Origin: Bacillus sp. HMF5848
GTDB taxonomy: Bacteria; Bacillota; Bacilli; Bacillales; HMF5848
Direction: 5' to 3'
NCBI RefSeq assembly: GCF_003944835.1
Contig: NZ_RWIV01000001.1
Span: forward strand, 2,388,501-2,452,500
DNA: 64,000 nt
Both the position numbers and the translations under genes were made by a program. Shown here one piece after another: positions 3,251-53,885 of this stretch. Each line of letters begins with the position of its first letter. Positions within the stretch are counted from its first letter, which is position 1. The notes beneath the pieces were generated by a model. It was not told the DNA's origin. It worked only from the letters and a program-made list of their open reading frames with translations, and did no database searches.

Positions 3251-3280
3251 GTTATGTTCTTGTTGTCTCTCTCATATAGT
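3251..3280 (+). promoter_or_regulatory. SigE-type promoter of the cotJ operon
   Basis: GTTATGTT (3251-3258) and CATATAGT (3273-3280) are 14 bp apart, close to the SigE consensus (-35 near GTCATATT, -10 CATACANT). The cotJ operon of B. subtilis is SigE-dependent. The site lies 34 bases before the start of cotJA. Confidence 0.65.
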
Positions 3281-3541: not shown

Positions 3542-3804
3542 TGAATAAGCAATTACCACCAGAGTATTACAGCTTGTTAGAAAATTTACAAGCTGTTGAC
3601 TTCGCTCTAGTTGAGCTAACGCTGTATTTAGACACTCATCCACAAGATTATCAAGCTATTCAGCAATTCAATGAACTTGCAAAAGAACGAAAAAAACTTA
3701 GTAAACTCTATGAGTCACAATATGGTCCTCTTCTACAGTATGGACATAGCTACTCAGGTTATCCTTGGAATTGGGACGATACACCTTGGCCTTGGCAAGT
3801 ATAA
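3541..3804 (+). CDS. cotJB: Spore coat protein CotJB
   Basis: An 87-residue protein with the CotJB pattern: a helical ENLQAVDFALVELTLYLDTHP segment and a Trp/Pro-rich tail ending YPWNWDDTPWPWQV. It is translationally coupled to cotJA and 26 bp upstream of cotJC. Acts in the mother cell as part of the CotJ coat complex. Confidence 0.93.
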   Translation: MNKQLPPEYYSLLENLQAVDFALVELTLYLDTHPQDYQAIQQFNELAKERKKLSKLYESQYGPLLQYGHSYSGYPWNWDDTPWPWQV

Positions 3805-3830: not shown

Positions 3831-4112
3831 ATGTGGGTATATGAGAAAAAATTACAGTATCCTGTAAAAGTTAGTAGCTGTAACCCTAGACTTGCTAAAT
3901 ACTTAATTGAGCAATATGGTGGAGCTGATGGTGAGCTTGCTGCTGCCCTTCGATATTTGAACCAACGATATACAATACCAGATAAAGTTATCGGTTTATT
4001 AACAGATATTGGAACTGAGGAGTTTGCACATTTAGAGATGATCGCAACAATGATTTATAAATGGAACATTTCTAAAATGCAACCTTTAGAAAGTCCTCAA
4101 ATCACCCTCTGA
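3831..4112 (+). CDS. cotJC: Interrupted cotJC, 5' part (CotJC residues 1-77 plus 16 foreign residues)
   Basis: CotJC is a manganese-catalase-like ferritin-fold coat protein. Codons 1-77 follow the family closely up to MIATMIYK. At 4056-4061 (TATAAA, codons 76-77) the reading frame enters a mobile element and continues for 16 unrelated codons to a stop at 4112. The rest of the gene is at 17470-17808 in the same orientation. Joining 3831-4061 to 17470-17808 yields a 189-residue protein, the expected CotJC length. In the integrated state only a 93-residue fragment can be made, lacking the C-terminal half. A ribosome site (AAGGGGGG) precedes ATG 3831. Confidence 0.95.
   Translation: MWVYEKKLQYPVKVSSCNPRLAKYLIEQYGGADGELAAALRYLNQRYTIPDKVIGLLTDIGTEEFAHLEMIATMIYKWNISKMQPLESPQITL
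4034..4084. other. attL of the cotJC element
   Basis: Core TATAAA at 4056-4061. Left of it is cotJC sequence (half of attB); right of it is the element arm, ending in ATGCAACC (4077-4084). That octamer is the exact inverted complement of GGTTGCAT at 17443-17450. The symmetry axis of the joined arms falls between 4059 and 4060, making AA the likely central dinucleotide. Confidence 0.8.
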
Positions 4113-4163
4113 TTATCCTCAGATACATTTCATTTATTTCCTTATTATATACCTAAAAAAGAG

Positions 4164-4193
4164 CATAAAAAAAAGAAGGCTTTATCAGCCTCC
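4164..4193 (-). terminator. Terminator downstream of the 52-residue ORF
   Basis: Stem 4175-4181 with 4187-4193 (one mismatch), followed on the minus strand by a run of eight T. It lies between the ORF at 4209 and the left element end, and would stop minus-strand transcription before it reaches cotJC. Confidence 0.65.
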
Positions 4194-4208
4194 ATTTCTA
4201 AAAGTTAT

Positions 4209-4367
4209 TTATCTCCAGAATGATTTTAAGTTCATTGCTACATTGATAAATTTCTTTATATCTAACTCTCCTACATCAGATGCCTTTCCAATTCCTTCTA
4301 TAATAACTGTCTTATTTTCTGCAATATCAATATTTGTATTTTTAGTTTTAGCCTCCTGTTTATTCAT
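4209..4367 (-). CDS. Small protein of unknown function next to attL
   Basis: A 52-residue protein beginning MNKQEAKTKN and ending NLKSFWR. The ATG at 4367 is chosen because GGGGAGGAG precedes it by about 5 bases. No family recognised. It is the element gene nearest the left junction and has its own terminator. Its size and place suit an accessory factor such as a recombination directionality factor, but nothing in the sequence proves this. A weak SigE-like -10 (CATATAGAT, minus strand of 4404-4412) lies 37 bases upstream, with no convincing -35. Confidence 0.6.
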   Translation of the reverse strand: MNKQEAKTKNTNIDIAENKTVIIEGIGKASDVGELDIKKFINVAMNLKSFWR

Positions 4368-4625
4368 GATGTCTCCTCCCCTGTAACTCTCTGCTGTTAT
4401 AAAATCTATATGTTTGTACTGATTGTCCCTATTCACTTCTTATTAAGTGCCTCTCTGTTACATTAGAGCTGAGTCTACTTTTGTGACCTTTTAATAATTG
4501 CCCTCACTTATAGATAAGAGCAGGGATAGTAAACTGTGACAGGTGGAGGAAATGTACATTCAAAAATGAGACTTTACATAGTAAAAGAGACAGATACTGT
4601 ATCAGTACCTGCCTCAGTAAGTTAA

Positions 4626-5366
4626 TTATTTTTTGTCTAGATTAGCAAAAGCATTAGATAGCTTTTTATGAGCTGTAGCCCTGCTAGTTGATGCTTGAAC
4701 ATTACTAGCCCTCAATGACTTAGCTACCTGCTCATTTTCTGTAGCTGTTACTTTTACATTTTTTAAAGGATTAGCCAATCTGCTCACCTCCTTTAAGAGC
4801 TTATTGACCTGATAATTCACAACACCTACAGAGACTCCATACTGTTTAGCAATCTCTGCAAACTTAGCTCCTGACTGTCTCATGTCTATCCATTCTTGTA
4901 ACATCTCTGGAGAATATTTCTTAGGTTTCCTGCCTCTTTTCTTTTTAGGCTTATTAGCCTCCTCAATCTCATCCTGTAACCTACAATAAGCATCAAACAG
5001 ATCAGCATCCTCAAAGAAATAATTCTTATGATGCTTGTACCCAATACCTACAACCTGTCTGCCCTTTACTACAGGATGAGGATAGACAATAGATATAAAG
5101 CCATCTTGATTAATAGCCCATTTATTAGGAGTATCTTTCAGAGTCTGCAATACATCAAAGATAATGTTATCCATGTTGTCCTGATGCATCTCTGTAAACT
5201 CCTTATCCAATGCCTTTAACAGCTTAGCTTTCTGCTTTTCTTCTAGGTTATAATCTACATCAATATAATCAGAGATAGCATCTAGAGTAGTGCCCCTATT
5301 AAGCATCCTCTGTAGGTAGTTATCCTTTACCATTGTATAATCTACTGTACTTAGCTTGTTAGGCAT
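4626..5366 (-). CDS. Element protein with basic hook and HTH, function unknown
   Basis: A 246-residue protein. A mixed alpha/beta N-terminal part is followed by a basic patch (KKKRGRKPKK, 141-150) and a resolvase-like helix-turn-helix (about 150-192, EIAKQYGVSVGVVNYQVNKL). The tail is Ser/Thr/Ala-rich. Start ATG 5366 follows AAAGGAG; an ATG nine bases upstream lies too close to that ribosome site. It overlaps the stop of the preceding gene by 8 bp, so the two are coupled. DNA binding is likely. Confidence 0.65.
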   Translation of the reverse strand: MPNKLSTVDYTMVKDNYLQRMLNRGTTLDAISDYIDVDYNLEEKQKAKLLKALDKEFTEMHQDNMDNIIFDVLQTLKDTPNKWAINQDGFISIVYPHPVVKGRQVVGIGYKHHKNYFFEDADLFDAYCRLQDEIEEANKPKKKRGRKPKKYSPEMLQEWIDMRQSGAKFAEIAKQYGVSVGVVNYQVNKLLKEVSRLANPLKNVKVTATENEQVAKSLRASNVQASTSRATAHKKLSNAFANLDKK

Positions 5367-5682
5367 TGCTGACATCTCCTTTAAACATCCTGTCCAGTTC
5401 CTCAGGCTCAGTCTCTGCCATCTCCATAAAGATATTAAAAGCTCTAGGACTGAATGAGCCTCTAAGGACTGCCTTTACAGTCTGATGAGGAATAGCTGTA
5501 ATATCCCTACAAAGTGCATTGGCTGACTCTCCTTGAATGTAATGTCTGTAAAGGATGTTACCTAGCATTTCTCCTGTAAACATTCCATGACCTGACCTCA
5601 GCAATTCATAGCCTTTCTCACTAATCTCAGTTGCTGTTTCTCCTGAATTTCTCCATTGATTAAACTTATAATTTATAGCCAT
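5359..5682 (-). CDS. Element protein of unknown function (107 residues)
   Basis: Starts at ATG 5682 after GGGAG. Residues about 10-90 resemble a small helical DNA-binding domain (GNILYRHYIQGESANALCRDI, then IPHQTVKAVLRG). The C-terminus is acidic (AETEPEELDRMF). No family recognised. Translationally coupled to the HTH gene downstream, which suggests one function. Confidence 0.6.
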   Translation of the reverse strand: MAINYKFNQWRNSGETATEISEKGYELLRSGHGMFTGEMLGNILYRHYIQGESANALCRDITAIPHQTVKAVLRGSFSPRAFNIFMEMAETEPEELDRMFKGDVSNA

Positions 5683-5713
5683 TTTTTCTTGCTCCCTTTT
5701 GTAGTTTGTAAAT

Positions 5714-5745
5714 AAAAAAGAGCAAGGCATTAGCCTCACTCTCCT
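5714..5745 (-). terminator. Terminator after the coiled-coil gene
   Basis: A 9-bp stem with two wobble pairs around a TAAT loop, then six T on the minus strand. It separates the 5882-7521 gene pair from the 4626-5682 pair. The rest of 5683-5881 shows no gene. Confidence 0.6.
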
Positions 5746-5881
5746 TATTTGTTGCTGTATAGCTTTTCAGCTATTTTAAACATTGAAAGTACAATGACTC
5801 CCTCTAAGATTACTGACATAGTGTAAAAGCTCCTCTCTGAAAGTAGTAACTCCTACCTCTCTTAATGCCTCCTGATGCTTA

Positions 5882-6493
5882 TTACTTTAATCTAGCCTCT
5901 AGCTGTCTTACTGCCTCTTTATTGAAAAACCTTTTAAGCTCTGTGTGTAGCTCTCTTTGTCCTAGATGAATTCCTGCATAGTTCTTGTTACTGTCTGCCT
6001 GAGTAATGATGCCAAAGTCAATTAATACTGATCTTGCAAATTTAAAAGCAGTATTAATCTTATTAGCCAGTTGGAACAATGTCTCTGAGTCCTCTTGTAA
6101 GCTCCTGACAGAAACTGTAGCCTGATACTCCATCTCTAAGCCTCTATACAAGAATACTGCTTTTTTATGGACTGCAAATAGCTCCTGAGCCACATCCTCT
6201 AGCTCTGCTGTCCTTTGTTTAGCTTTTGCCTCATTGACTCCTTTGGTAAGCTCAATTTCCTCCTGTAGCTCCTGAGCTTTTTTCTGTAGCTTTTTAGCCT
6301 CAGTAACATCTGTAGCCTCTGCTTTTTCCTGCTCAATTTCCTCTAGCTTTTCCTGTAGCTCTACAATAACCTCAGTATCTTTCTCTTTAGCATCCTCTAG
6401 GTTATCTACTGTCTCATTTAACATAGTCTGTAATGCCTGTAGCTCCTCAGCCTTTTTAGTTACCTCTGCTGTCATCTGTTGTTTGTTTTCCAT
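5882..6493 (-). CDS. Coiled-coil element protein, function unknown
   Basis: A 203-residue protein. Residues about 5-110 are dense in Glu, Lys, Gln and Leu with heptad spacing, predicting a long coiled coil. Residues 110-203 are more globular (FLYRGLEMEYQATV; GIHLGQRELHTELKRFF). Good ribosome site AAAAGGAG before ATG 6493. It lies 38 bp downstream of the 329-residue gene, so probably the same transcript. No homologue recognised. Confidence 0.65.
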   Translation of the reverse strand: MENKQQMTAEVTKKAEELQALQTMLNETVDNLEDAKEKDTEVIVELQEKLEEIEQEKAEATDVTEAKKLQKKAQELQEEIELTKGVNEAKAKQRTAELEDVAQELFAVHKKAVFLYRGLEMEYQATVSVRSLQEDSETLFQLANKINTAFKFARSVLIDFGIITQADSNKNYAGIHLGQRELHTELKRFFNKEAVRQLEARLK

Positions 6494-6531
6494 ATTTAAT
6501 CATTCTCCTTTTAATAATTTAATAGTTTTAG

Positions 6532-7521
6532 TTACTGGTTATCTCTCATCATTTTCTGTATTTCTTCCTCTACAGAAAGTAGTATCTCTAGCTCCTCCTG
6601 ATGCTCTGTAGCCCTTTGTTTTACATCTGACTTATCAATCTCAGGAGGCTTTGTAGTTTGTTTAGCTGATCTGACCTCTGAAAGCATCTTCTCAGCCTCA
6701 TCCTTACCAAATACCTCTACATACATCTGCTTTATCTTTTCATCAGATATAGGCTTTTTATTAGCATCTTGCTTAATGCTGTTACCTTTTGCATACAGCT
6801 TTACAGCTCTCTTATTTAAGGGAGTAGCCTTGCCTTTCTGTATTCTGTCTAACCTTACTGCCTGTTGTAGCAGCTCCAAATCAGGATGCTGAGTCTGATT
6901 GTAAAGGCTCATAAACAACAAACCATAATACATAAGCTCCAATCTAAAGGACTCATCAGAAATATCTGCATCTACAAAGTTCTGAGTATTTTCTTTACTT
7001 TCTCTGTCCTCTCTGTAGAGTTTATCTGACTCCTCTAGCATGATGCCTAACTGTCTGCTGTCTAGATATTGACTGATAGAGGATAGCTCCTCTTTAATAA
7101 ACCAATGTAAACTCCTTTTCTTTACTGCTGTAAGGTTTAACAAGTCTTGTCCAGAGAGTCCTGCAAAATCAATCAGCAATTGCTTATCTTTGGTGGATGC
7201 TGAGGGCTTAATAGCTGACTGAATTAAGTTCTGCAAAAAAGCATCTAACTGCTCATTGGTTAATGTCCTGGCTAAATTGTTTACATCAGCCTCAGGCTCT
7301 TTAGTTGCCTCCTGTTGTGCTTTCTCCTCATCAAATGCTGTCTGGTTGTCTGAGATGTATTTCCTGAGAGTTCTATCTGATACTCCAATTTCTTTACTAA
7401 ACTGACTCTGAGTAGCCTCAAAATGCACTTTACAATAAGCAAAGCATAAAACAATATCCTCAGGAGTAGAGGGATTAGCCTCAGCTAAAAACTCCTGCAT
7501 CTGTTTAAGATTGTCTGCCAT
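6532..7521 (-). CDS. Element protein with N-terminal HTH, function unknown
   Basis: A 329-residue protein. Residues about 17-56 form a helix-turn-helix (FEATQSQFSKEIGVSDRTLRKYI), like the N-terminal domain of some phage terminase small subunits. Residues 60-329 are helical, acidic and basic, without a motif I know. As no large terminase or capsid gene is nearby, a packaging role is unlikely. Maintenance or regulation of the element is a guess. Confidence 0.6.
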   Translation of the reverse strand: MADNLKQMQEFLAEANPSTPEDIVLCFAYCKVHFEATQSQFSKEIGVSDRTLRKYISDNQTAFDEEKAQQEATKEPEADVNNLARTLTNEQLDAFLQNLIQSAIKPSASTKDKQLLIDFAGLSGQDLLNLTAVKKRSLHWFIKEELSSISQYLDSRQLGIMLEESDKLYREDRESKENTQNFVDADISDESFRLELMYYGLLFMSLYNQTQHPDLELLQQAVRLDRIQKGKATPLNKRAVKLYAKGNSIKQDANKKPISDEKIKQMYVEVFGKDEAEKMLSEVRSAKQTTKPPEIDKSDVKQRATEHQEELEILLSVEEEIQKMMRDNQ

Positions 7522-7625
7522 GTTGTAGCTCCTTTCTAACTTTAGTTGATATTTTATCTAGTCTGTCTCTGTCTCCTGCTCCTGATGGAGTCTCAATGCT
7601 CTTTTTTAATAAAACAATTGGAATA

Positions 7626-7662
7626 CAAAAAAGGAGCAGACCTATTAAATGCCTGTTCCTTT
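7626..7662 (-). terminator. Terminator after the Rep-like gene
   Basis: An imperfect stem (7631-7640 with 7650-7658) followed by six T on the minus strand, about 85 bases past the stop at 7744. Confidence 0.55.
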
Positions 7663-7743
7663 CTGCATATACTATTTCATCTGAGTGAACATATCTTAAA
7701 GTAGGTATAGCAAATTCCCTATAAGAAATTTTAGATGTACAGA

Positions 7744-8616
7744 TTATTTACCCCTAATTAAGAAATCTGCTTGTAATGACTTGTCAGGCTCCCCATCTTT
7801 TCTATAGAAAACAAATGGGTTTACCTTAAGATGTGTCTTTCTACCTTTTAATACCTTAGCAAAGACTGTCATACCATCCCATTTAAGATTATTAATTTTA
7901 GACTGTACATTTTTCTTATCAAGTCCTGTAATCTTACAGATGTCTGCTACAGATAATGCATCTATATTACCTCCATCAGTTTCAAAAGGATTAGAGCAAA
8001 GTAGATTATTTTCATAGTTAATGTAAGGAAGGATTAAATACAAAAATCCCATGTCAGCAGGTTTCTTTTTATTCCTTTTATTAATGTTAGCCTGATACAG
8101 CTTTCTGATCTGCTCAGAGAATGTCTTAGCTACTTTCTTGTTTTCTGTCCTGCCCTTAAAGTGATATTTATTGTTAATAGCAAAAGCATCAACCTCTTTA
8201 CCATCTACTTTGATTGTTTTGAGTGACATCATGCCTTTATCTAAGAAGTTGTCTATATGTTTCTTAATATGACTCCTGTTAGTGATGCCTAAGACCTCTC
8301 CAATGTCTCCTCTTTTCATAGGTACAGGATTATGAGTTGATTTAATTAATACATTGTCCTCATATCTTACATAAGTCTGCAATACAAGGAAGTAACCTAG
8401 CTCTACAGTTGTCAGCATTTCAATAACCTCCTTAGCATTTTCCATATCTGAAAAAGTAAAAGCCTTAGCTTTCTTTCTGCTATTCTCTCTCCTCTGTCTC
8501 TCCTGATATGCTTTCTGTTGTTCTGGTGTCCTAGTAAAAGCAAATTCATGTTTTTCTCCTGTTGCCAGATTTACATACTCATTAGCTTTATATTGTGTCA
8601 CTTGATAACCCTCCAT
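7744..8616 (-). CDS. Winged-helix protein, possible plasmid-type replication initiator
   Basis: A 290-residue protein with two likely winged-helix units: residues about 60-140 (VELGYFLVLQTYV; RGDIGEVLGITNRSHIKKHID) and 185-265 (MGFLYLILPYINYENNLL; SVADICKITGLDKKNVQSKINNL). Tandem winged helices of this kind occur in Firmicute plasmid and phage replication proteins. A pair of 24-bp direct repeats lies about 180-240 bases upstream of its start, consistent with an iteron origin or an autoregulatory operator. The replication role is inference. Confidence 0.6.
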   Translation of the reverse strand: MEGYQVTQYKANEYVNLATGEKHEFAFTRTPEQQKAYQERQRRENSRKKAKAFTFSDMENAKEVIEMLTTVELGYFLVLQTYVRYEDNVLIKSTHNPVPMKRGDIGEVLGITNRSHIKKHIDNFLDKGMMSLKTIKVDGKEVDAFAINNKYHFKGRTENKKVAKTFSEQIRKLYQANINKRNKKKPADMGFLYLILPYINYENNLLCSNPFETDGGNIDALSVADICKITGLDKKNVQSKINNLKWDGMTVFAKVLKGRKTHLKVNPFVFYRKDGEPDKSLQADFLIRGK

Positions 8617-8796
8617 ATATTTATTAGTGAGCCTGTATCAGCTCCTTTCTTCTGTTCATCTACTAGTGCAGCTAACTCATCCAGTTAACAAGTATGGAAG
8701 GGAAAAAAGTTAAAACAGATTTTAAAAAAGCCCTCTAGAGTATCATTAATAGAAAAAAAGCCAATTGTGACAGGGAGGTAATAGGCCTCTGATTTA

Positions 8797-8853
8797 ATTG
8801 GGGGTATTTTGTGAACATAAGTAGGCTGGATTGGGGGTATTTTGTGAACATAA
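8797..8853. repeat. Pair of 24-bp direct repeats, iteron or operator candidate
   Basis: The same 24 bases occur at 8797-8820 and 8830-8853 (start ATTGGGGGTATTTT, end GAACATAA). They are 33 bp apart start to start, about three helical turns, so both would face the same side of the DNA. They lie upstream of the Rep-like gene. Confidence 0.8.
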
Positions 8854-9798
8854 AAAAATAAGCCTTGAGCCTTACAGCCACAAGGGATTAGAGAGGATTG
8901 GTACACAAAGTTTTATCTTATATCTTGAGATATAGGAGCAAAGCTCCACAACAACAATAAATTATTACTAACAATCTTTTATAGCTACAATATGGACTTT
9001 TATTATTTAAGTTTGAGAGGATGGAAGGCTTTAGCCTGACAGACTCTAGCCCTTTAGGGCTTATTATGATTGTAAAAGCAGTAATAACAGTTAGAGCAGT
9101 TAGAGATACAATTATTTTCACAGCTACAGCCTTTAAAAATACAGTTAGTAGATAGATAAATAAATGTAGAGGGCTTTAATCCTCTGCAATGTCTCCTTTT
9201 TAATGATTTTAGTTATGTTGCTGTAACTAAGATTAATGACATAGGCAGAGAAAGGGCAGACAGCTAGTACTTACTGTATTAGTAACTGCTCAGTTTGTTT
9301 GTCCTTTCATCTCTCTTTAAGTAATGGAAATAACATATTGCTCAGGCTTTAGGGCTTTTCTAATATTGTTTTCTTGAGTTATTACTTTCTAATTTTAATT
9401 GATGTTTTATAACTGCTCTTTTACAGTCTGTTGTTCTTCTTTATGAGGTAGGACAGGCTGTATTTTTTTGTTTAAATGCTGGATAGATTACAGATCAGTA
9501 GGGAGATAAAGATAGTGTTACTGAATTTGGGATAACTCAAGTAGATGAGGCAGTTAGTATCCAGTAAATTGACTGTAAGAATTAGAGGGAGAATAAGAGG
9601 AAAAACATTCAAGAAACCTGCCCTGTGCAAGCCTCCTCCTGCCAGTACTTTTTTATCAGGTATTGTCAAGTAAATAACCTTTACATATTGTAACTACTGC
9701 AATTCAGCCCTTTCCTGCTGTTGTTCCTGTAAGTGTCTCAGTAGGAATAATGAAAGATTGTCAAAAGCTAATCTGCTGTAGTGATCCCCTTGAAAAAT
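8854..9798. other. Long non-coding stretch of the element
   Basis: About 1 kb without a convincing gene: no open frame has both a ribosome site and protein-like composition. It contains several short hairpins (around 9029, 9047 and 9168) and AT-rich tracts beside the direct repeats. This is compatible with a replication origin or small RNAs, but neither can be shown. Confidence 0.4.
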
Positions 9799-9821
9799 GT
9801 AACACAATGATATTATGTTAC
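9799..9821. promoter_or_regulatory. Inverted repeat upstream of the tyrosine recombinase gene
   Basis: Two 10-base arms, matching at nine positions, flank GAT (GTAACACAAT/ATTATGTTAC). The half-site GTAACA recurs at 9865-9870 and 9881-9886, just before the ribosome site. This clustering suggests an operator for a regulator or a binding site for the recombinase. Confidence 0.5.
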
Positions 9822-9908
9822 CTCTAAAATGTTGTTATATCAGTTCTCCCCTGTTAAACTTATAGTAACAGTATTAAAAAGTAACATATTGAGGAGAGTT
9901 ATTACATT

Positions 9909-10457
9909 ATGAATACAGCTCAGCCAATCAGAGATTTAAAGCAGGTCAATGACTTAATGGATGTTTATGAAAAAGGCTCAAAGCAGTATTTATTGTTAGC
10001 CTATGCCCTTAATACAGGACTAAGGATTAGTGACATACTTAAAGCAAATGTAAAAGACAGCCTTAAAGGAATCTGGAAAGACAGAGAGACAAAGACAGGC
10101 AAAGAAAAGATAATAGAGCTTACTCCAAAGTTACAGCTACTGATAAGAGATTTTATAGATGCTCATGATCTGCAAGCTGAGGATTATCTCTTTTACAGTA
10201 ACAAGGACAGGACAAAGCCAATAAGCAGAGTACAGGCTCATAGGATTGTAGCTAAGGCAGGAGATATGATAGGAATAACCCTAAGCTGTCATAGTCTGAG
10301 AAAGACTTTTGGCTACATTGCTTATAAACAGGGGGTAGACCTTTCATTACTGCAATACATCTTTAATCACAGTACACAGGCAGTAACATTAAGGTATATA
10401 GGGATAACACAGGATGAGGCTAATAAGGTAACATCCACAATGTCTATAGGGATTTAA
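9909..10457 (+). CDS. Minimal tyrosine recombinase (catalytic domain only)
   Basis: A 182-residue phage-integrase-family protein. All catalytic residues are visible: R39 (TGLRISD), a Lys near 62-65, H128 and R131 (CHSLRKTFG), H154 (FNHS) and Y163. It lacks the N-terminal arm/core-binding domain of ordinary integrases. GAGGAGAG precedes the ATG. As the serine recombinase accounts for the insertion, this enzyme may resolve multimers of a circular form or be a remnant of another integration module. Confidence 0.85.
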   Translation: MNTAQPIRDLKQVNDLMDVYEKGSKQYLLLAYALNTGLRISDILKANVKDSLKGIWKDRETKTGKEKIIELTPKLQLLIRDFIDAHDLQAEDYLFYSNKDRTKPISRVQAHRIVAKAGDMIGITLSCHSLRKTFGYIAYKQGVDLSLLQYIFNHSTQAVTLRYIGITQDEANKVTSTMSIGI

Positions 10458-10460
10458 GGA

Positions 10461-10493
10461 GCAGAGGGCAGAAAACCTCTGTTCTTTTTATTT
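10461..10493 (+). terminator. Terminator of the tyrosine recombinase gene
   Basis: CAGAGG (10462-10467) pairs with CCTCTG (10476-10481), followed by a T-rich tract. It starts right after the stop codon. Confidence 0.65.
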
Positions 10494-10580
10494 TGTTGTG
10501 GCTATTTGGGAGGGATTGTAGTATAAAAGAATTATGGGAATTTTTACCAACCCTATCCTCTACAAAAGGAGGTGAATTGA

Positions 10581-10766
10581 ATGAATGAAATAAGAAAAAC
10601 AATGTACAAGGGAAAACTTTGTTTTATTGTTCATGAGTACAGCTCTGGTTTCTGTGAGGTTAAAGAAATGAGCAAATCTGAATTTTATTTTAAAGTTGAT
10701 CTGGTGCATAAGTCAGAGTTACAAAAGCCTGAGCAAGATGAACAAAAAGAAAACCTCTTTGTTTAA
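10581..10766 (+). CDS. Small element protein, function unknown
   Basis: A 61-residue protein, beginning MNEIRKTMYKGK, with a likely small beta fold and a polar acidic tail. A strong ribosome site (AAAGGAGGTGA) supports it as a real gene. Bases 10767-11246 behind it show no further gene, only a short repeated TGTAAGCCTSACAAA motif at about 10773 and 10864. Confidence 0.6.
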   Translation: MNEIRKTMYKGKLCFIVHEYSSGFCEVKEMSKSEFYFKVDLVHKSELQKPEQDEQKENLFV

Positions 10767-11246
10767 CCCTCATGTAAGCCTCACAAATCTTTTCTAAACT
10801 ATCCAAAGTGTAATAAAGTATTGTAAGTCCAAAAGGATGTTTCCCTCCTGTACAAGCCTCTCTGTAAGCCTGACAAAAAACCTGCTAATGTATCTATTAC
10901 TCTCTGTTGCTAATGGTGAAAAGACATAAAACCTCTACATACTGCCAAACAGAGAGTAGAGATGCCCTGACAGGGGGGTCACACCCTAAAATATCAACCA
11001 AGGTATGCAGTCTACATATAAAATCCTAAAATTTACAAATTGGAGGAATTAAGAGCTACAAGACACCTCCATTCTTTGTAATGTCTATAACTGTATTATC
11101 TGAGGGGGTACATAAAATTAGACCCTTAAATTTTTTATTCCTATAAATGTAGATCAGGAGGAATAGGCCTTCTTAAAGAAATTTTTGCTAAGCAAACAGT
11201 ATTACATACCCCAATAATTTATGATAATCTATTCAAGGGGTGCATT

Positions 11247-11489
11247 ATGAATAATATTGAATATGATAATAATGGTAGAGCTAAGTATCATCCTGATTTA
11301 CATCCTAATCATGGAAAACACTATACTCTTTCAGAATTAGAGTATATCTGCAAATTTTATGAATCTGATGGGCGTAAAAGTGTAGCTGCCACAGTTGGAA
11401 GAACTGAATCAACTATTGCTGCCCTTGTACATACATTAAGAAAAAATAAAAAATATGACTATTATAAAAACCTAAACAAATTTTGGTGA
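11247..11489 (+). CDS. Small HTH-like protein
   Basis: An 80-residue protein. Residues 27-66 look like a helix-turn-helix (LSELEYICKFYE; SVAATVGRTESTIAALVHTLRK). The N-terminal NGRAKYHPDLHPNHGKHYT and C-terminal YYKNLNKFW are motifs I associate with small phage and plasmid proteins of Firmicutes. A regulatory role is inferred. It carries one of only four CpGs of the element (11373). Confidence 0.6.
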   Translation: MNNIEYDNNGRAKYHPDLHPNHGKHYTLSELEYICKFYESDGRKSVAATVGRTESTIAALVHTLRKNKKYDYYKNLNKFW

Positions 11490-11532
11490 AAGATAGCCAC
11501 ACAGTTAATTATGTAACTTTAACCAATTTAGT

Positions 11533-12312
11533 TCAGTCTTGGTATAAGCTATACAGATCAGCAATATCAATAGCTATACCACTTTCATTTAGTCTATTTA
11601 TCCTTTGGTTGTATAACTTATCAAGGATTTCTTGTTTGTCCTTAAATAAACCAAAATGTAGCTTTTTATGACAGACCAGACAAAGGGAAACAACATTTGA
11701 ATAAACATCTAAGCTATTATTAAATTTCTCTTGATATTTCATAGGTATTAAATGGTGTGCCTCAACATAGTTTTCCTTGCTAAATTTAGAAGTGAAATAT
11801 TGATGAGATCTGTCAAACTCACATAAATTATTTGCAATTGCAATTGTATCACTTGCAATTTTAGGGTTTCTAATCCAAACTTTATCATTATTAATTGCTT
11901 TATAGTGTGGTCTATCCCTAGGCATATCAGAAATTATGATTCTTCCTTTAGAGTCCTCACCCTTTTCTCTGATTTCCTTTTTATAAGCTATTTTATATTG
12001 CTCTATCTCACTCAGCAGTAAGAAGGTGTTTTTTTCAGACTCTGTATACTTTTTATAATACTTTAAAGCATTACTGTACATTCTATTTCCTTTTGTATCT
12101 TTACTGAGGAATTTAGGGATAGTTAAGTATTTAGTTATAATGTTTTCAATACTTTCTGGATCAGTAAGATTATATATGTTACCTTCTAACAATCCCTCTT
12201 GATTAAACTCTTTTGATATTGTATTAATTGCACTGGTGTATTTCCCAAGTGTATTAGCTGAAAGTTTTGTATTTTCCTCTAACCAGTTTAAAAACCTTTT
12301 TTTCCTCTCCAT
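11533..12312 (-). CDS. HNH endonuclease, probable restriction enzyme
   Basis: A 259-residue protein. Residues about 1-100 are helical. Residues 190-240 hold an HNH motif: VEAHHLIPM, then N and VSLCLVCHKKLHFG. The AHHLIPM form is typical of HNH nucleases in restriction systems, including McrA-like enzymes that cut methylated DNA. It is divergent from the adjacent C5 methyltransferase with about 200 bp between their starts, so it may be the cognate restriction enzyme or a separate defence gene. Specificity cannot be read. Confidence 0.75.
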   Translation of the reverse strand: MERKKRFLNWLEENTKLSANTLGKYTSAINTISKEFNQEGLLEGNIYNLTDPESIENIITKYLTIPKFLSKDTKGNRMYSNALKYYKKYTESEKNTFLLLSEIEQYKIAYKKEIREKGEDSKGRIIISDMPRDRPHYKAINNDKVWIRNPKIASDTIAIANNLCEFDRSHQYFTSKFSKENYVEAHHLIPMKYQEKFNNSLDVYSNVVSLCLVCHKKLHFGLFKDKQEILDKLYNQRINRLNESGIAIDIADLYSLYQD

Positions 12313-12514
12313 AATTCTCTCTCCCTTTTCTTTATTTAACTTGAAAATAATATACTAGTTTTATTTTAAAGGTAGCATTTCACTATTCCAACAAATATCT
12401 AATTTATAATTTTTTTGACAAAGATTGTCTTATTTTGTTGACTACATCATCACATTCATTCATAATAACCCTATAAAAGTTAAATATTATTTTAACTTAA
12501 GGGAGGGTATAAAT

Positions 12515-13855
12515 TTGTATACAATAAGCAAAGATAAAGTCAGATTGCTTATGAAAGAAAATGGAATTAACACTCAAAAAGATTTAGCAGAACAGTTAGG
12601 CATTAGTAAGAATCAACTCTCCATGCTACTCTCCCCTAACTTTAATCCTATTAAATCTAATGCTATGAAACTATGTGAGGTATTAGATGCAAAATTTGAT
12701 GAGATTATTGAGCCTGAGCAAATATCTTTTCTAGATGATACATATAATAGTATTTCAGATCAGACTCAGGAAAAAGAGATTAATGTAGCTGACTTTGAGG
12801 GAGATACCTTTGTAGATGTCAAAGGTATTAAAGCAAATAAGAGCTATACCTGTGTAGAGCTATTTGCAGGAGCAGGTGGTCTTGGACTTGGTCTTGAAGA
12901 GGCAGGATTTGAGTCAAAAGGTCTTGTAGAATTAGACAAGTATGCCTGCCAGACTCTGAGAAAGAACAGACCTAACTGGAATGTAATAGAAAAAGACATT
13001 GTAGAAGTAGCTGAACAAGGGATTAAAGACTTTGTTGATATTCCTATTGGGGAGTTGGACTTGTTATCAGGTGGTTATCCATGTCAGGCATTTAGTTATG
13101 CAGGAAAGAAAATGGGATTATCTGATGCAAGAGGTACACTGTTTTATCATTATGCTCAAATCTTAAAACAGCTATTGCCTAAAACTTTCTTAGCTGAAAA
13201 TGTCAGAGGCTTAGTAAATCATGATGATGGGAAAACATTATCCTTAATGCTTAAAGTCTTTTCTGATATTGGCTATACAGTTAAATGGAAAGTCTTAAAG
13301 GCATTAGACTATGATGTAGCTCAGAAAAGAGAAAGGATAGTTATTATAGGGATTAGAAATGATCTTGTTAATGACTATAACCTTGAATATCATTTACCTG
13401 AGCCTTATGGTTATCAGCTTACTCTGAAAGATATACTAAAAGATGTTCCAGAATCATCAGGAGCAAAGTATCCTGAGTCTAAAAAGAAAGTCTTAGACCT
13501 TGTGCCTCCTGGAGGATACTGGAGAGACTTACCGGATGATATAGCTAGAGATTTCATGGGAAAAAGCTATTACTCAGGAGGAGGCAGAACAGGTATGGCA
13601 AGGAGGTTATCATGGGATGAACCTTCTTTAACACTAACCTGCTCTCCTGCTCAAAAACAGACTGAAAGATGCCATCCAGATGAAACTAGACCATTTACAG
13701 TAAGAGAATATGCTAGAATTCAAAGTTTCCCTGATGATTGGGAATTTGACTGTTCAGTTAATAATGCATATAAACAAATTGGAAATGCTGTCCCAGTAAA
13801 TATGGCTAAAGCCATTGGACTTTCAATTGTTAATGTATTAAATCAGGTTAACTAA
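12515..13855 (+). CDS. C5 cytosine DNA methyltransferase with fused HTH regulator
   Basis: Start TTG at 12515 is chosen because GGGAGGG lies 7 bases upstream, giving 446 residues. Residues 8-60 are an XRE-type HTH (KDLAEQLGISKNQLSML). The methylase motifs follow: FAGAGGLG (117-124), SGGYPCQAFS with catalytic C190, AENV (227-230), QKRERIV (270-276) and GNAVP (423-427). The variable region is about 285-380. In enzymes such as M.EcoRII and M.SsoII an N-terminal HTH represses the methylase's own promoter, so autoregulation is likely. All key residues are intact. Confidence 0.93.
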   Translation: MYTISKDKVRLLMKENGINTQKDLAEQLGISKNQLSMLLSPNFNPIKSNAMKLCEVLDAKFDEIIEPEQISFLDDTYNSISDQTQEKEINVADFEGDTFVDVKGIKANKSYTCVELFAGAGGLGLGLEEAGFESKGLVELDKYACQTLRKNRPNWNVIEKDIVEVAEQGIKDFVDIPIGELDLLSGGYPCQAFSYAGKKMGLSDARGTLFYHYAQILKQLLPKTFLAENVRGLVNHDDGKTLSLMLKVFSDIGYTVKWKVLKALDYDVAQKRERIVIIGIRNDLVNDYNLEYHLPEPYGYQLTLKDILKDVPESSGAKYPESKKKVLDLVPPGGYWRDLPDDIARDFMGKSYYSGGGRTGMARRLSWDEPSLTLTCSPAQKQTERCHPDETRPFTVREYARIQSFPDDWEFDCSVNNAYKQIGNAVPVNMAKAIGLSIVNVLNQVN

Positions 13856-13913
13856 AGTTGTAGCTGATCTGGATTCCTGGTTAAAAACATAATGACTAAA
13901 TAATATCAAAAAA

Positions 13914-13948
13914 GGGGGATGCAAAATAACTGCATCCTCCTCTTTTAT
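13914..13948. terminator. Bidirectional terminator between methyltransferase and nuclease
   Basis: A 10-bp stem (13914-13923 with 13931-13940, one wobble) with T-rich flanks on both sides, located between convergent genes. Confidence 0.8.
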
Positions 13949-14694
13949 TACCAAACTTCTTTTACTATTTTAGGGTCATAATTCCACTCTTTAGCAATCT
14001 CTTTAGCCAGAGTTTTGATTACTTGCTCAATTAATTCAGAGCCATCAATCTCTGATGCTACATCACCAATTGCATCTGTAATCTTCTGATAGAAATCAAT
14101 CTCCCCAGTCAATCTGTGCCAGAATTCTTGTCCAACAATAACAGGGAATTCTTGATTAATTGTCTTATAATGCCCACTTAATTCCTCAGGAGTACCATAA
14201 AACACACCAACCATTAAGTCTGTAAGACTGATATTGAGGTTATTAGTCCTTGCAAGGTTTTTAACCCCTGAAAAATGACCTTTAATTGTTGCTACATCAT
14301 CTTTATTGATTGTATTTGGCCCTGCCTTGATCTGACAGTATTTCCTCCTACCATCAATCTTGTCAATAAACTCAATATCAATTCCTGAGGTTGTGGATGC
14401 AAAGCCCTCAAGTACCTCACTACAAAATTTTTGTAGCTTATTTCCAAAGGTAGTGTTAATAGATGTACCTAGAACCCTTGGATAAATTAAGGCTTTTGCT
14501 ACTGACTCAGGGTCATCATTCCCAGTCAGAAAGCTCGCTTTATACTTATCTAAAAAAGGATTAAGATTAAACTCTTTCAATCTTGTTAACTTCTTTGTGT
14601 TAGCGATATGACTAGGGACAATTTCATCCTTAAAAAATGCTTTTGCTTTAATGATAATCCTGTCCAATTCTTCCTTACTCAGTTTTTGAGTCAT
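13948..14694 (-). CDS. Type II restriction endonuclease, PmeII-like family
   Basis: A 248-residue protein from ATG 14694 (GGGGAGGA upstream). The overall pattern, including the segment from GIDIEFID to YCQIKAGPNT (about 118-142), matches what I recall of PmeII-family restriction enzymes. The D...QxK arrangement is a PD-(D/E)xK-type active site variant. It is convergent with the methyltransferase, a common restriction-modification layout. Recognition site unknown. Two of the element's four CpGs (14536, 14604) are in this gene. Confidence 0.75.
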   Translation of the reverse strand: MTQKLSKEELDRIIIKAKAFFKDEIVPSHIANTKKLTRLKEFNLNPFLDKYKASFLTGNDDPESVAKALIYPRVLGTSINTTFGNKLQKFCSEVLEGFASTTSGIDIEFIDKIDGRRKYCQIKAGPNTINKDDVATIKGHFSGVKNLARTNNLNISLTDLMVGVFYGTPEELSGHYKTINQEFPVIVGQEFWHRLTGEIDFYQKITDAIGDVASEIDGSELIEQVIKTLAKEIAKEWNYDPKIVKEVW

Positions 14695-14869
14695 CTGTTT
14701 TCCTCCCCTCTGCTTATTAGCCACAGTCAATATTATTAGTATGTGCAAGTGTGGCTAGGATAATCTTACCATTAAATTCCTGTTTTTCCTAGCCAATACT
14801 AACCATAGAAAAATAGGGAGCTTGTCTTATTATAATTTTACCAATATATATTTAACATTCTTATTCATG

Positions 14870-15757
14870 TCATGTATAAAAAAGCAAACCCACAACTACA
14901 ATTGAAAGCAATACATAAAGTATCCCCATAATTAATTTTTCATCATCTAGTTTCCTTAACCAACCTTTGGACTCTTTTGGTTCATTTTCATCTTTAATAT
15001 CCTCAAAATATGTAAGCAACAAATGTATATCTTCCCCAAACTCCCCTAAGGATGTTGCTATTTGTTCAGGATCAAATGTTGCCCTAGATAAATCAATAGT
15101 TAAGCCATGTTCTCTACCTGTTAAAAAAAGGTTTCCTTGTAAGGTATCTTCAACTTTAAAAATTCTTTCCCTTAAATCATCAGGAATAACAGAAATATAT
15201 TTACTTATAAATGCATCAATTTCTTTAGAGTGTCTTTCTTTAAAATAATTGGTGTACTGTTGAACTGATAATTCAACCTCTTTAAAACTATCAAAAATAT
15301 TTCCAGTATTTATACTGTTGTCTATTATTAAACTTCTGATACCTTTCCTTAGAAAGTCTTCTCTCACATAGTCATTAGTATTGTTTTTTATATTTTCCAA
15401 TTGCTGTTTGATGTCTTTCATATTAGAAACATCTTTAGCAACCTTTGTTGGCTCTTTTGTTATGTAAGCAATAAAGTCCTTTACAATATTCATAACCATA
15501 GACTCATATCTTGTACCTAACATCTTATATACTTTCTCTTTTAATTTTCTTTTTTCATTTCTTTGCAATAGATAAGCTATTAAATATGAGGCAATAAGAA
15601 TAAACACACTATCTATAATTGTACTAGGTATAAAAGATAACCAGAATTGCTCTGTAAGCCCTCCTGTTAAATGTTGAATAAGAAGTAATGAAACAGATAG
15701 GAAGATTACAAATATCCAAATTATAAAATGTTCTTTAAATGATAAAAGTCTTTTCAT
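14870..15757 (-). CDS. Membrane protein of the restriction island, function unknown
   Basis: A 295-residue protein from ATG 15757 (AGGGGAGGA upstream). It has two N-terminal membrane helices (about 11-30 and 40-62), a long soluble helical region (65-270) and one C-terminal helix (about 275-294). No catalytic motif seen. Position between restriction genes and recombinase suggests a defence or accessory role, but that is only context. Confidence 0.6.
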   Translation of the reverse strand: MKRLLSFKEHFIIWIFVIFLSVSLLLIQHLTGGLTEQFWLSFIPSTIIDSVFILIASYLIAYLLQRNEKRKLKEKVYKMLGTRYESMVMNIVKDFIAYITKEPTKVAKDVSNMKDIKQQLENIKNNTNDYVREDFLRKGIRSLIIDNSINTGNIFDSFKEVELSVQQYTNYFKERHSKEIDAFISKYISVIPDDLRERIFKVEDTLQGNLFLTGREHGLTIDLSRATFDPEQIATSLGEFGEDIHLLLTYFEDIKDENEPKESKGWLRKLDDEKLIMGILYVLLSIVVVGLLFYT

Positions 15758-15803
15758 TCCCAAGTCCTCCCCTGATGAAAATTATACCATTATGCTCCTA
15801 CCT

Positions 15804-15850
15804 TTTTAATAAAAAAAAAGAGGAGCTTAGGCTGTTTGCTCCTGCTCCTC
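15804..15850 (-). terminator. Terminator of the serine recombinase gene
   Basis: GAGGAGC (minus strand of 15844-15850) pairs with GCTCCTC (minus strand of 15820-15826), followed by nine T. The stem includes the last codons of the recombinase. Confidence 0.8.
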
Positions 15851-17392
15851 AGATTGACCTTTATAATGTATTTTCATTTCAATTTCTGCCTTATGATCTC
15901 CCACTCTTTTATATTCAATGTGGTCAATAAGGCTAGAAAGTAAATGGTTTATTTCTTTGGTTTCTAAATCTGCTGTCCCCATCAGAATGCTCTTTAACCT
16001 ATCCAATACTGCTTGTAGCTCATTTAACTTCTCATCATTAGACTTACTCTCTAATCTCTTTAACTGAGCCTCTGTATGCTCTCTCTGAGCTTTTAACTGC
16101 TTAATCTGTTTCTGAGCCTCTTCCTCAGTAAATATCTCCATGATAAAGCCCTGCTGTACTTTCTTAATGCTTGATTCAATCCTTTTAAGGTTGTTTTTAA
16201 GTGCTACCTTTTCATCAGCAGGATTAGATTTGTCCTCTTTCATGTTGTTCTTAATATCATCCAGATACTCCTCAAGAGCATCAACATACTGAGAAAACTG
16301 AGCAAAGAAAACTGTCTCAAAGAGGTCTAACCTGACTCCCTTGTTTTTACAAGTAGTATAAGTCTCTCCATCATCATTGTAATGTCTGGTCTGACATGAT
16401 GTAATTCTCAGCTCTTTTCCTTTCCTTCTCTGGAAACTGTGAGTCCTGCCACAAAGACTGCACTTTATCAAGCCTGTAAATATCACCTTTCCAATCCTAG
16501 CACTTGGAGGCTTAGAGTTCCTGCTTTCTCTAATGTCCTTTACTGCATCCCAATCCTCAGGAGATACAATAGGCTCATGTGCATCTTCAAAGATAATCTG
16601 GTCAGACTCCTCTGTTTTGTCCTGTCTAGGAGAGCCTGATGGTTTCATACTAGTCTTAGATACTTTTGTCTTACCATAAATAACAGTACCTTTATAAACT
16701 GGATTAGCCAATATTACAGAGATTCTTGCCTTATTCCACTTTGTTCCTGATGGAGTTAAAATACCCTCTAAGTCAAACATCCTTTCTATCTCAGTAGATG
16801 TATGACCTGATAAGTAAAGAGTAAAGATTCTTTTAATTACTGGTGCATTTTCATCTGGCACTAACTTCTTTGATTTATGGTCATAGCTGTAACCAACAGG
16901 AGTCTTACCTCCTACCCAGTTTCCTTCCTTAGCAGACTGCCTTTTTCCCCTTACCAGTCTTTTCTTAATGTTTAAGTATTCCTGCTTTGCTACAATAGAC
17001 TGCATATCTGACATTAAGTCATCTTCTTGAGTAGCATAGTCATATATTTTAGATGAGGTAACTACCTGTACTCCATAGTTAGTAAGGATTTCTTTAATTT
17101 GTGAAAAGCCTACTGTATTTCTTGAAAGTCTGTCTTGATCTGTAACTACTACAGCATCAAACTCATACCTCTGTACCTTGTCTAACATTTTATTAAGCTC
17201 AGGTCTGACCTTTTCATCAATACTCTGAGATGAGCCTATTTCTTGAAAGACCTCAAATTCCCAGTTATTTTCTACACATTTATCTACAAGAAAAGCTAAC
17301 TGTCTTTTGATGGTATCCTCAGTTTCATCAGGTCTGGACTTCCTGCTGTATATAGCCACTTTCTTTATTTTAGCCATTGATAAATTCTCCAT
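15827..17392 (-). CDS. Large serine recombinase, integrase/excisionase of the cotJC element
   Basis: A 521-residue protein from ATG 17392, chosen because AGGAGAGG lies 6 bases upstream. The resolvase domain (about 8-150) has the catalytic Ser in YSRKS (S19) and the DQDRLSRN motif. A recombinase domain follows (GKTPVGYSYD, about 165-290), then a zinc ribbon (CSLCG...C...C, about 310-360) and a coiled coil (about 395-475) typical of integrase-type enzymes. The gene starts 72 bp from the attR core and reads inward, as in SPbeta-like and skin systems. It contains no CpG, so every Arg codon is AGA or AGG. Confidence 0.96.
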   Translation of the reverse strand: MENLSMAKIKKVAIYSRKSRPDETEDTIKRQLAFLVDKCVENNWEFEVFQEIGSSQSIDEKVRPELNKMLDKVQRYEFDAVVVTDQDRLSRNTVGFSQIKEILTNYGVQVVTSSKIYDYATQEDDLMSDMQSIVAKQEYLNIKKRLVRGKRQSAKEGNWVGGKTPVGYSYDHKSKKLVPDENAPVIKRIFTLYLSGHTSTEIERMFDLEGILTPSGTKWNKARISVILANPVYKGTVIYGKTKVSKTSMKPSGSPRQDKTEESDQIIFEDAHEPIVSPEDWDAVKDIRESRNSKPPSARIGKVIFTGLIKCSLCGRTHSFQRRKGKELRITSCQTRHYNDDGETYTTCKNKGVRLDLFETVFFAQFSQYVDALEEYLDDIKNNMKEDKSNPADEKVALKNNLKRIESSIKKVQQGFIMEIFTEEEAQKQIKQLKAQREHTEAQLKRLESKSNDEKLNELQAVLDRLKSILMGTADLETKEINHLLSSLIDHIEYKRVGDHKAEIEMKIHYKGQSEEQEQTA

Positions 17393-17432
17393 GTTTGTCC
17401 TCTCCTGTCTGCCTAAATGCTTATGTATCAAT

Positions 17433-17461
17433 AGTTTAACATGGTTGCATATTGGTTTCAA
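17433..17461 (-). promoter_or_regulatory. Possible SigA-type promoter of the recombinase gene
   Basis: TTGAAA and TAAACT, 17 bp apart on the minus strand, lie 41-69 bases before the start codon, wholly inside the element beside the attR core. If used, the recombinase could be expressed in both integrated and excised states. Confidence 0.4.
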
Positions 17462-17490
17462 TCTATAAACTTACAAAAGACGCGACACCA
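17443..17490. other. attR of the cotJC element
   Basis: Core TATAAA at 17464-17469. To its left is the element arm beginning GGTTGCAT (17443-17450); to its right is cotJC sequence (CTTACAAAAGACGC...). CpG dinucleotides reappear immediately outside (17481). Confidence 0.8.
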
Positions 17491-17808
17491 GAACAACTTA
17501 AGCAAGCAGGTCTTGACCCACACTACGTTAACCATGATAGTGCACTGTTTTATCATAATGCTGCAGGGGCGCCTTTTACGGCTACTTACATCCAAGCAAA
17601 AGGAGATCCGATTGCTGATTTATATGAGGATATTGCCGCAGAGGAAAAAGCAAGAGCCACATACCAGTGGATCATTAATATGAGCGATGATCCAGACCTT
17701 AATGACGGATTACGTTTTTTACGCGAGCGGGAAGTTATACACTCTCAACGCTTCCGTGAAGCAGTTGAAATACTTAAAGCGGAACAAAATAAAAAACGTA
17801 TATTTTAA
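17464..17808 (+). CDS. cotJC: Interrupted cotJC, 3' part (CotJC residues 76-189)
   Basis: Encodes YK followed by LTKDATPEQ and the rest of CotJC to its usual KKRIF-type end, with no frameshift or internal stop. It has no start codon with a ribosome site of its own, so it cannot be expressed as a protein while the element is present. The conservation of this half argues that it is still under selection and is therefore rejoined in some cells. Confidence 0.95.
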   Translation, partial: YKLTKDATPEQLKQAGLDPHYVNHDSALFYHNAAGAPFTATYIQAKGDPIADLYEDIAAEEKARATYQWIINMSDDPDLNDGLRFLREREVIHSQRFREAVEILKAEQNKKRIF

Positions 17809-24061: not shown

Positions 24062-24121
24062 TACGAACATAGACAAATAAACGTCTCTTCTCGAAAATTT
24101 TACGAAAATAACGTTTTACCT

Positions 24122-53801: not shown

Positions 53802-53885
53802 AAAGTGCACTTTCATTATACGTGCAAAAAAACAGGTACAGAAAATAAAGGTATGCTCAATCACATTTTTTCATACCCTGCTTTT

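What the first reader, a model, noticed from the sequence alone, without database searches (positions are those of the whole stretch)
3831..17808. A skin-like intervening element splits cotJC and its precise removal restores the gene
Both halves of cotJC are intact, co-oriented and broken at codons 76-77. The only shared sequence at the ends is TATAAA. Leaving one copy gives ...MIATMIYK-LTKDATPEQ... with no frameshift, 189 codons in all, the usual CotJC length. A large serine recombinase sits at the right border. By analogy with skin in sigK, SPbeta in spsM and the spoVFB element in B. weihenstephanensis, excision in the mother cell would let the coat gene be expressed while the germline keeps the element. 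I cannot say from memory whether a cotJC element is already catalogued.
Basis: partly seen in the sequence, partly recalled or inferred. Interest (0 to 1): 0.95.

Follow-up and report, generated by a model that had tools for sequence, protein, structure and literature searches.

The report
Excisable element splitting spore-coat gene cotJC
A 13.4-kb, apparently non-viral DNA element splits the spore-coat gene cotJC of this bacterium, and related elements split the same gene at the same codon in 14 other spore-former genomes; each is predicted to be cut out by its own recombinase and a tiny helper protein in the mother cell during sporulation, which would make the gene whole again.

Summary
cotJC is split after codon 77 by 13,408 bp; joining the flanks at one TATAAA gives an uninterrupted 189-codon CotJC, and the genome has no other CotJC. 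A large serine recombinase (LSR) sits at the right end.

It is not a one-off. Counting the window, 15 genomes have cotJC split at codon 77 by LSRs 42-83% identical to this one, with a relative of the small protein at the opposite end (one only partly resolved). No intact CotJC was found in any of the 15. Elements run from about 2.1 to 14 kb; the Niallia one is 2,076 bp and encodes only the LSR and the small protein. Upstream of the small ORF lies RACAA-N9-12-CATA (7 of 7 discovery cases, 6 of 8 held-out), resembling a SpoIIID box plus a sigma-E/K -10.

Best reading: a dedicated non-phage family of developmentally excised cotJC elements (LSR plus directionality factor), most like gin in gerE and SPbeta in spsM. 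Excision was not observed. No published cotJC element turned up in my searches, but one key survey (Mageeney 2020) was not held.

The parts
3251..3280 (+). sigma-E-like promoter of the cotJ operon (GTTATGTT, 14 bp, CATATAGT)
   Evidence: read by eye against a recalled sigma-E consensus; not tested
3314..3541 (+). cotJA
   Evidence: Pfam CotJA, 3.9e-08
3541..3804 (+). cotJB
   Evidence: Pfam CotJB, 2.8e-29; the only CotJB in the genome
3831..4061 (+). cotJC 5' half, codons 1-77
   Evidence: Pfam Mn_catalase 1-80; joined gene 189 codons
4059..4060 (+). predicted crossover dinucleotide AA, left copy (attL)
   Evidence: centre of the attP inverted repeat; crossover itself inferred
4061..4084 (+). 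left element arm of the attachment site (P')
4209..4367 (-). 52-aa candidate recombination directionality factor
   Evidence: relatives at the end opposite the LSR in the other elements
4409..4427 (-). GACAA-N10-CATA motif upstream of the candidate RDF (SpoIIID-like box plus sigma-E/K -10-like box)
4626..8616 (-). cargo: helix-turn-helix protein (4626-5375), three proteins without confident family (5359-5739, 5882-6493, 6532-7521), PHROG 9501-like protein (7744-8616)
9909..10457 (+). short tyrosine recombinase
   Evidence: Pfam Phage_integrase 1.3e-24
11533..12312 (-). HNH endonuclease
   Evidence: Pfam HNH 2.2e-06; PADLOC type IV restriction 3.4e-08
12425..13855 (+). C5 cytosine methyltransferase with N-terminal HTH
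   Evidence: Pfam DNA_methylase 6e-86
13948..14748 (-). EcoO109I-like type II restriction endonuclease
   Evidence: Pfam RE_EcoO109I 4.7e-34
14870..15763 (-). protein of unknown family
   Evidence: no Pfam family
15827..17392 (-). large serine recombinase; ATG at 17392 is my choice of start, the listed ORF starts TTG 17461
   Evidence: Pfam Resolvase, Recombinase, Zn_ribbon_recom; best PDB relative SPbeta YokA/SprA
17443..17466 (+). right element arm of the attachment site (P)
17467..17808 (+). cotJC 3' half, codons 77-189, with the right copy of the core AA at 17467-17468
   Evidence: Pfam Mn_catalase 100-199

Best explanation
A 13,408-bp element of a serine-recombinase family found in cotJC splits that gene after codon 77, and it is predicted to be excised precisely in the mother cell during sporulation, which would restore the 189-codon spore-coat gene. 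Shown by sequence: both halves are open and in register, no other CotJC was found in the genome, an LSR lies at one end and a conserved ~50-aa protein at the other, and the ends form an inverted-repeat attachment site centred on the AA of codon 77. Inferred: the LSR recombines attL with attR at that AA; the small protein is its recombination directionality factor (RDF), made in the mother cell from a sigma-E/K promoter helped by SpoIIID; excision therefore happens when the sigma-E-controlled cotJ operon is on; the forespore chromosome keeps the element, which is how it is inherited.
For: Gene restored in frame; no spare CotJC found in this genome or in the 14 others with a split gene. Codon 77 is the junction at the C-half in 15 of 15 and at the N-half in 15 of 15 elements, window included. 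All 10 LSRs at 61-83% identity from the genome-contig scan lie in a split cotJC; the 16 at 39% or less show no cotJC hit in their loci. 9 of 397 genomes of the order have the LSR, all 9 beside a cotJC half. Small ORF opposite the LSR: 7 of 7, then 4 of 4, then 4 of 4 (one partial). The 2,076-bp Niallia element encodes just these two proteins, as in the engineered SPbeta with only sprA and sprB, which still excised during sporulation (PMC4191935, abstract and passages). Promoter motif 7 of 7 and 6 of 8 held-out, 0 of 11 upstream of LSRs. SpoIIID present in the host; the C. difficile skin RDF depends on sigE and spoIIID (PMC5025042, passages).
Against: No excision data. The RDF role rests on linkage and size; it matched no known family and its model was poor. 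The motif was chosen from the first 7; 2 of 8 held-out lack it, several held-out cases are near copies of others, and the Bacillus SpoIIID consensus is recalled. LSR synonymous divergence is below that of cotJC in the 7 pairs compared, so insertions are younger than the host genes and conservation of the 3' half does not prove use after insertion. One relative (L092, broken LSR at a contig edge) is in a genome without CotJC.
Confidence: 0.85

Rival explanations
1. An ordinary integrative island that uses cotJC as a landing site and simply inactivates it; the small protein serves transfer rather than development, and the host tolerates loss of a dispensable coat protein.
For: Elements have moved between hosts after the host genes diverged and carry restriction and other cargo. 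In the order sample only 9 of 397 genomes carry the LSR.
Against: The 2,076-bp Niallia element has kept LSR and small ORF and nothing else of size; the small ORF carries a mother-cell-type promoter motif and the LSR does not; the halves are open in the cases read.
Confidence: 0.1
2. The element excises and restores cotJC, but on another cue (growth phase, DNA damage, transfer), so restoration in the mother cell is incidental.
For: yin in yabG was detected excised at all time points (PMC10747680, passages); SPbeta also excises on DNA damage (PMC4191935).
Against: The conserved motif upstream of the small ORF and the absence of other genes in the Niallia element.
Confidence: 0.04
3. Assembly artefact or chance juxtaposition.
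For: No read data were available.
Against: The same junction recurs in 15 separately assembled genomes, and both halves lie on one 4.5-Mb contig here.
Confidence: 0.01

Closest known systems
gin element in gerE, Bacillus cereus ATCC10987 (GirC + GirX; PMC5595907, abstract, sections 3, 8, 9, 11 and passages)
   Same: Non-phage element with restriction-modification genes splitting a mother-cell gene; LSR plus a very small RDF (42 aa); in-frame restoration
   Different: Target is cotJC, not gerE; gin is 28.6 kb with three serine recombinases; whether GirC is related to this clade was not tested
SPbeta in spsM, B. subtilis (SprA + SprB; PMC4191935, abstract and passages)
   Same: LSR plus 58-aa RDF at opposite ends; the RDF has a mother-cell promoter; a two-gene remnant suffices for excision; YokA/SprA is the best PDB relative of this LSR
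   Different: SPbeta is an active prophage; SPbeta-group LSRs are about 29% identical; the RDF candidate here gave no match to the SprB-containing PDB entries
skin in sigK (B. subtilis; C. difficile: PMC5025042, passages)
   Same: Split mother-cell gene; in C. difficile the RDF gene depends on sigma-E and SpoIIID, in B. subtilis SpoIIID activates the recombinase gene (PMC517825, passages)
   Different: Prophage-like, 48 kb in B. subtilis, and splits a sigma-factor gene
vfbin in spoVFB and yin in yabG (named in PMC10747680, passages)
   Same: Elements interrupting sporulation genes
   Different: Other genes; described as prophage-like; yin was reported from one strain, while the cotJC elements span several families

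Membership tests
Developmentally excised sporulation-gene-intervening elements | Sits inside a sporulation gene expressed in the mother cell | tested here: met
   cotJC by Pfam and operon context; sigma-E control of cotJ from the title of Henriques 1995 in a reference list
Developmentally excised sporulation-gene-intervening elements | Precise removal restores the reading frame | tested here: met
   189 codons, no stop
Developmentally excised sporulation-gene-intervening elements | Site-specific recombinase in the element, with attachment sites at its ends | tested here: met
   LSR; inverted repeat centred on codon 77; activity not tested
Developmentally excised sporulation-gene-intervening elements | Element-encoded RDF | tested here: inconclusive
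   conserved small ORF linked to the LSR; function inferred
Developmentally excised sporulation-gene-intervening elements | Mother-cell-specific expression of RDF or recombinase | tested here: inconclusive
   promoter motif 7 of 7 and 6 of 8 held-out
Developmentally excised sporulation-gene-intervening elements | Excision observed during sporulation | not testable with these tools
   needs cells
Prophage-like elements (skin, SPbeta) | Phage structural genes | tested here: not met
   No structural family among the ORFs scanned: 14 element ORFs in Pfam, 9 in PHROGs
gin | Inserted in gerE | tested here: not met
   target is cotJC
gin | GirC/GirX homologues | not tested
   Their sequences were not in hand; a B. 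toyonensis LSR at 44% identity (P0090) has unknown position

The most novel reading that the evidence does not exclude
cotJC hosts its own class of non-phage 'DNA introns': one recombinase clade aimed at codon 77 of cotJC, spread between hosts across the Bacilli, found in nature as small as a 2.1-kb two-gene cassette (recombinase plus a new ~50-aa RDF family wired to SpoIIID/sigma-E), and spliced out of the mother-cell chromosome each time a spore is made.
Probability: 0.7. Interest if true: 0.85.

Novelty: new variant of a known kind. Interest (0 to 1): 0.77.

Why it matters
Programmed gene reconstitution during sporulation was known from a handful of genes, mostly through prophage-like elements. 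Here a coat gene is split at one fixed codon in many genera by elements that share a recombinase clade and a small accessory protein. That gives a natural comparative set for asking why sporulation genes are targets, how an RDF becomes tied to a mother-cell promoter, and how small a self-excising developmental element can be. The 2,076-bp Niallia element could be moved whole into B. subtilis for a direct test, and the family offers new LSR/RDF pairs.

Tried and rejected
Considered and rejected or left open. (1) Intact second cotJC: none found in 15 of 15 genomes with a split gene; some are drafts. (2) The Mn-catalase fragment at C1:1503129 as a spare 3' half: short and degenerate, not CotJC-like. 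(3) Purifying selection on the 3' half as proof of function: proteins conserved and synonymous sites near saturation, but element genes are younger than cotJC divergence, so not decisive. In one search, 8 of 11 N-halves and 10 of 11 C-halves were extracted by pattern, and L017 has an indel that misaligns its ungapped C-half comparisons (pN 0.56); the N-halves of L009, L015, L017 and the C-half of L015 are missing. (4) SprB-like fold for the small protein: model too poor (mean pLDDT 56.9, pTM 0.28); no fold search was run. (5) Phage or plasmid origin: no record at 60% identity or more among 916 phage and 618 plasmid records with a match, best listed 29%; viral contigs gave two relatives at 24-25%; small protein not in phage records. 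(6) Naming the host: all 60 relatives returned were 'same order' only and contig 2 matched one plasmid record over 6%; left unnamed. (7) A first motif scan of L100-L102 used a narrower pattern by mistake and missed L102; one search used the original pattern.

Literature: cotJC + 'intervening element' + sporulation, 0 papers; cotJC + recombinase, 8 papers, of which I saw passages of PMC11222575 only; at least 3 of cotJC, prophage, interrupt, excision, 15 of 384 listed, PMC4028888 among them not read; 'regulated gene integrity' + sporulation, 2 papers, passages seen; rearrangement and intervening-element searches, passages of PMC10747680 and PMC13141910. Mageeney et al. 2020 (doi 10.1093/nar/gkaa156), the likeliest place for an earlier listing, is not held; from recall its abstract does not name cotJC. 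A search for the recalled SpoIIID consensus string found 0 papers.
Full report
What is there. The window holds a cotJ operon (cotJA 3314-3541, cotJB 3541-3804) whose third gene, cotJC, stops being CotJC after codon 77 (4061) and resumes at 17467. Joining the flanks at one TATAAA gives 189 codons and a stop with no frameshift; the insert is 13,408 bp. The genome (4.55 Mb, 2 contigs) has one CotJB and no second CotJC: its other Mn_catalase hits are one longer non-CotJC enzyme and one short degenerate fragment.

The element. At its right end, pointing inward, is a large serine recombinase (LSR) whose best solved relative is YokA/SprA of SPbeta. The rest includes a helix-turn-helix protein, a short tyrosine recombinase, an HNH nuclease, a C5 methylase, an EcoO109I-like restriction enzyme and unknowns. 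No phage structural family was recognised among the 14 element ORFs scanned with Pfam and the 9 scanned with PHROGs.

It is a family. A genome-contig scan with an alignment of 17 LSRs gave 26 loci. The 10 at 61-83% identity (L008-L017) all lie in a split cotJC, the LSR next to the 3' half in nine and next to the 5' half in L011; the 16 at 39% or less show no cotJC hit in their loci. Whole-genome searches found the LSR at E <= 1e-100 in 9 of 397 genomes of the order (the window included), all 9 beside a cotJC half, among them LSRs of only 50% and 46% identity. In the class it is in 4 of 398: the window, two more in cotJC (45% and 42%), and one broken LSR at a contig edge in a genome without CotJC. 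The phylum search (398 genomes, E <= 1e-60) gave the window and one 28% relative with no cotJC hit in its 4.3-kb locus. Six genomes I take to be named ones already seen (matching contigs, coordinates or identities; inferred); on that basis 15 distinct genomes have the split gene. In an LSR tree the 15 cotJC rows form one group against 14 others (support 94/89; 92% of 200 bootstrap trees). A second tree that adds 18 LSRs of unknown position places many of those among the cotJC rows, so cotJC targeting is shown for members whose context was read, not for every relative.

Junctions. The C-half resumes at codon 77 (AAA or AAG) in 15 of 15 elements and the N-half ends there in 15 of 15, window included; the preceding codon varies (TAT, TAC, or TGT at some right ends). 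The element ends make a 50-bp inverted repeat centred on the AA of codon 77 in 7 elements tested; the symmetry was reached by 0 to 26 of 2000 simple shuffles, and this centre is the best one in 6 of 7, not in L012. In L011 and L090 the element lies the other way round, LSR beside the 5' half and small ORF beside the 3' half.

The second gene. A relative of the small ORF lies at the end opposite the LSR in 7 of 7 elements whose far end was in view (in L009, L010, L013 and L015 it was not in view), in 4 of 4 of those far ends fetched later, and in 4 of 4 distant elements, where it is recognisable mainly by a V.V.G.L...K pattern read by eye; in L101 only a 29-aa frame was found. For L013, L015 and L088 the two halves are on different contigs, so linkage is inferred. 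The smallest element (Niallia, L016) is 2,076 bp (from coordinates) and encodes the LSR (512 aa) and this protein (57 aa); L090 spans about 2.7 kb. A database search with the 7-member profile found 54 relatives, 16 of them on contigs (matched by longest-contig length, a proxy) that also carry one of the 120 listed LSR hits. I take it to be the RDF. It matched nothing in Pfam, NCBIfam, PHROGs or phage records, and nothing credible in the PDB.

When it would act. Upstream of the small ORF, 7 of 7 first elements have RACAA-N9-12-CATA (2000 shuffled sets: mean 0.09, max 2); the motif was chosen from those seven. In eight far ends read afterwards it is in 6 (L045-L048, L090, L102) and absent in 2 (L100 has AATACATT where CATA would be; L101 none). 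It is in 0 of 11 LSR upstream regions and in 8 of 984 window 130-mers. L045 and L046 resemble each other and L048 resembles L017, so fewer than six held-out cases are independent. RACAA resembles the SpoIIID box (Bacillus consensus recalled; C. difficile KRTAACARK, PMC5025042) and CATA the sigma-E/K -10 (recalled). The host has SpoIIID. The C. difficile skin RDF falls 25- and 40-fold in sigE and spoIIID mutants (PMC5025042); sprB has a perfect sigma-E/K -10 and an imperfect -35, with SpoIIID among suggested helpers (PMC4191935); SpoIIID activates the B. subtilis skin recombinase gene (PMC517825). This timing suits cotJ, a sigma-E operon by the title of Henriques 1995 (reference list).

Selection and spread. 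No intact CotJC was found in the 15 genomes with a split gene (G109 has an extra 43-aa fragment). Of 60 other genomes of the order, 47 list a CotJC-length frame and 13 list none (hand count); none lists two halves kilobases apart, though G012 and G053 show another Mn catalase in adjoining pieces. Halves are open and conserved with synonymous sites near saturation. But LSR synonymous divergence is below that of cotJC in the pairs where both could be compared (for example L009/L010 0.23 vs 0.86, L013/L014 0.52 vs 0.83), and the LSRs of two Sporolactobacillus species are nearly identical. So elements move between hosts and re-enter the same codon, and conservation cannot by itself prove excision after insertion. 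Cargo differs between elements: Eco57I-like methylases, a short tyrosine integrase, small resolvases, an ion channel, a Rep-like protein and an ABC-3C-type protein among the 20 of 61 listed ORFs that I scanned.

Comparison. Closest in working are gin in gerE (non-phage, LSR plus 42-aa RDF, restriction genes; PMC5595907) and SPbeta in spsM, whose engineered two-gene remnant still excised during sporulation (PMC4191935); the Niallia element looks like a natural counterpart of that remnant. It differs in target, in non-phage content (against SPbeta and skin), in breadth and in RDF sequence. I found no published cotJC element, but Mageeney 2020 could not be read. GirC was not compared; a B. toyonensis LSR at 44% (P0090) may or may not be it.

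Verdict.

Noticed in passing
L016:9911-11987: Natural 2,076-bp cotJC element in Niallia sp. NCCP-28 with only an LSR and a 57-aa small protein.
   Followed up: yes
L011:9688-17652 and L090:1193-4417: In two of 15 elements the insert lies in the opposite orientation, with LSR beside the 5' half; the core AA keeps its place in the host, so the attP arms appear swapped around it.
   Followed up: partly
L088:675-809 and G109:C107:8151-8279: A second small-ORF-like frame outside the cotJC 3' half and an extra 43-aa cotJC C-terminal fragment suggest a past second insertion in genome G109.
   Followed up: no
L009, L011, L012, L014, L017 element interiors: Varied cargo: Eco57I-like methylases, an ABC-3C-type protein, an ion channel, a G2P/Rep-like replication protein, small resolvases (20 of 61 listed ORFs scanned).
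   Followed up: partly
L008-L017, about 40-60 bp upstream of the LSR start: Several LSR genes share a TTGATAYATCAA-like palindrome upstream, perhaps an operator (seen by eye).
   Followed up: no
L092:113-976 (genome G424): Broken LSR relative (48% over 293 aa, two stops) at a contig edge in a genome where only a 33% Mn catalase, no CotJC, was found.
   Followed up: partly
P0090 and P0099: B. toyonensis and B. nitratireducens LSRs (44%, 41%) group beside the L090/L091 cotJC LSRs; their insertion site, cotJC or gerE, is unknown.
   Followed up: no
G000:C1:1503129-1503377 (L005:5127-5312): Short degenerate Mn-catalase fragment between two short-chain-dehydrogenase-like genes (gene type read by eye).
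   Followed up: partly
window 24120-24253 and 53883-54016: Two FMN riboswitches on the minus strand; part of an LSU rRNA and a 5S rRNA at the right edge.
   Followed up: no
PMC11222575 (passages): In C. difficile R20291 a cotJC-like gene is described as lying next to prophage phi027; whether it is interrupted was not checked.
   Followed up: no
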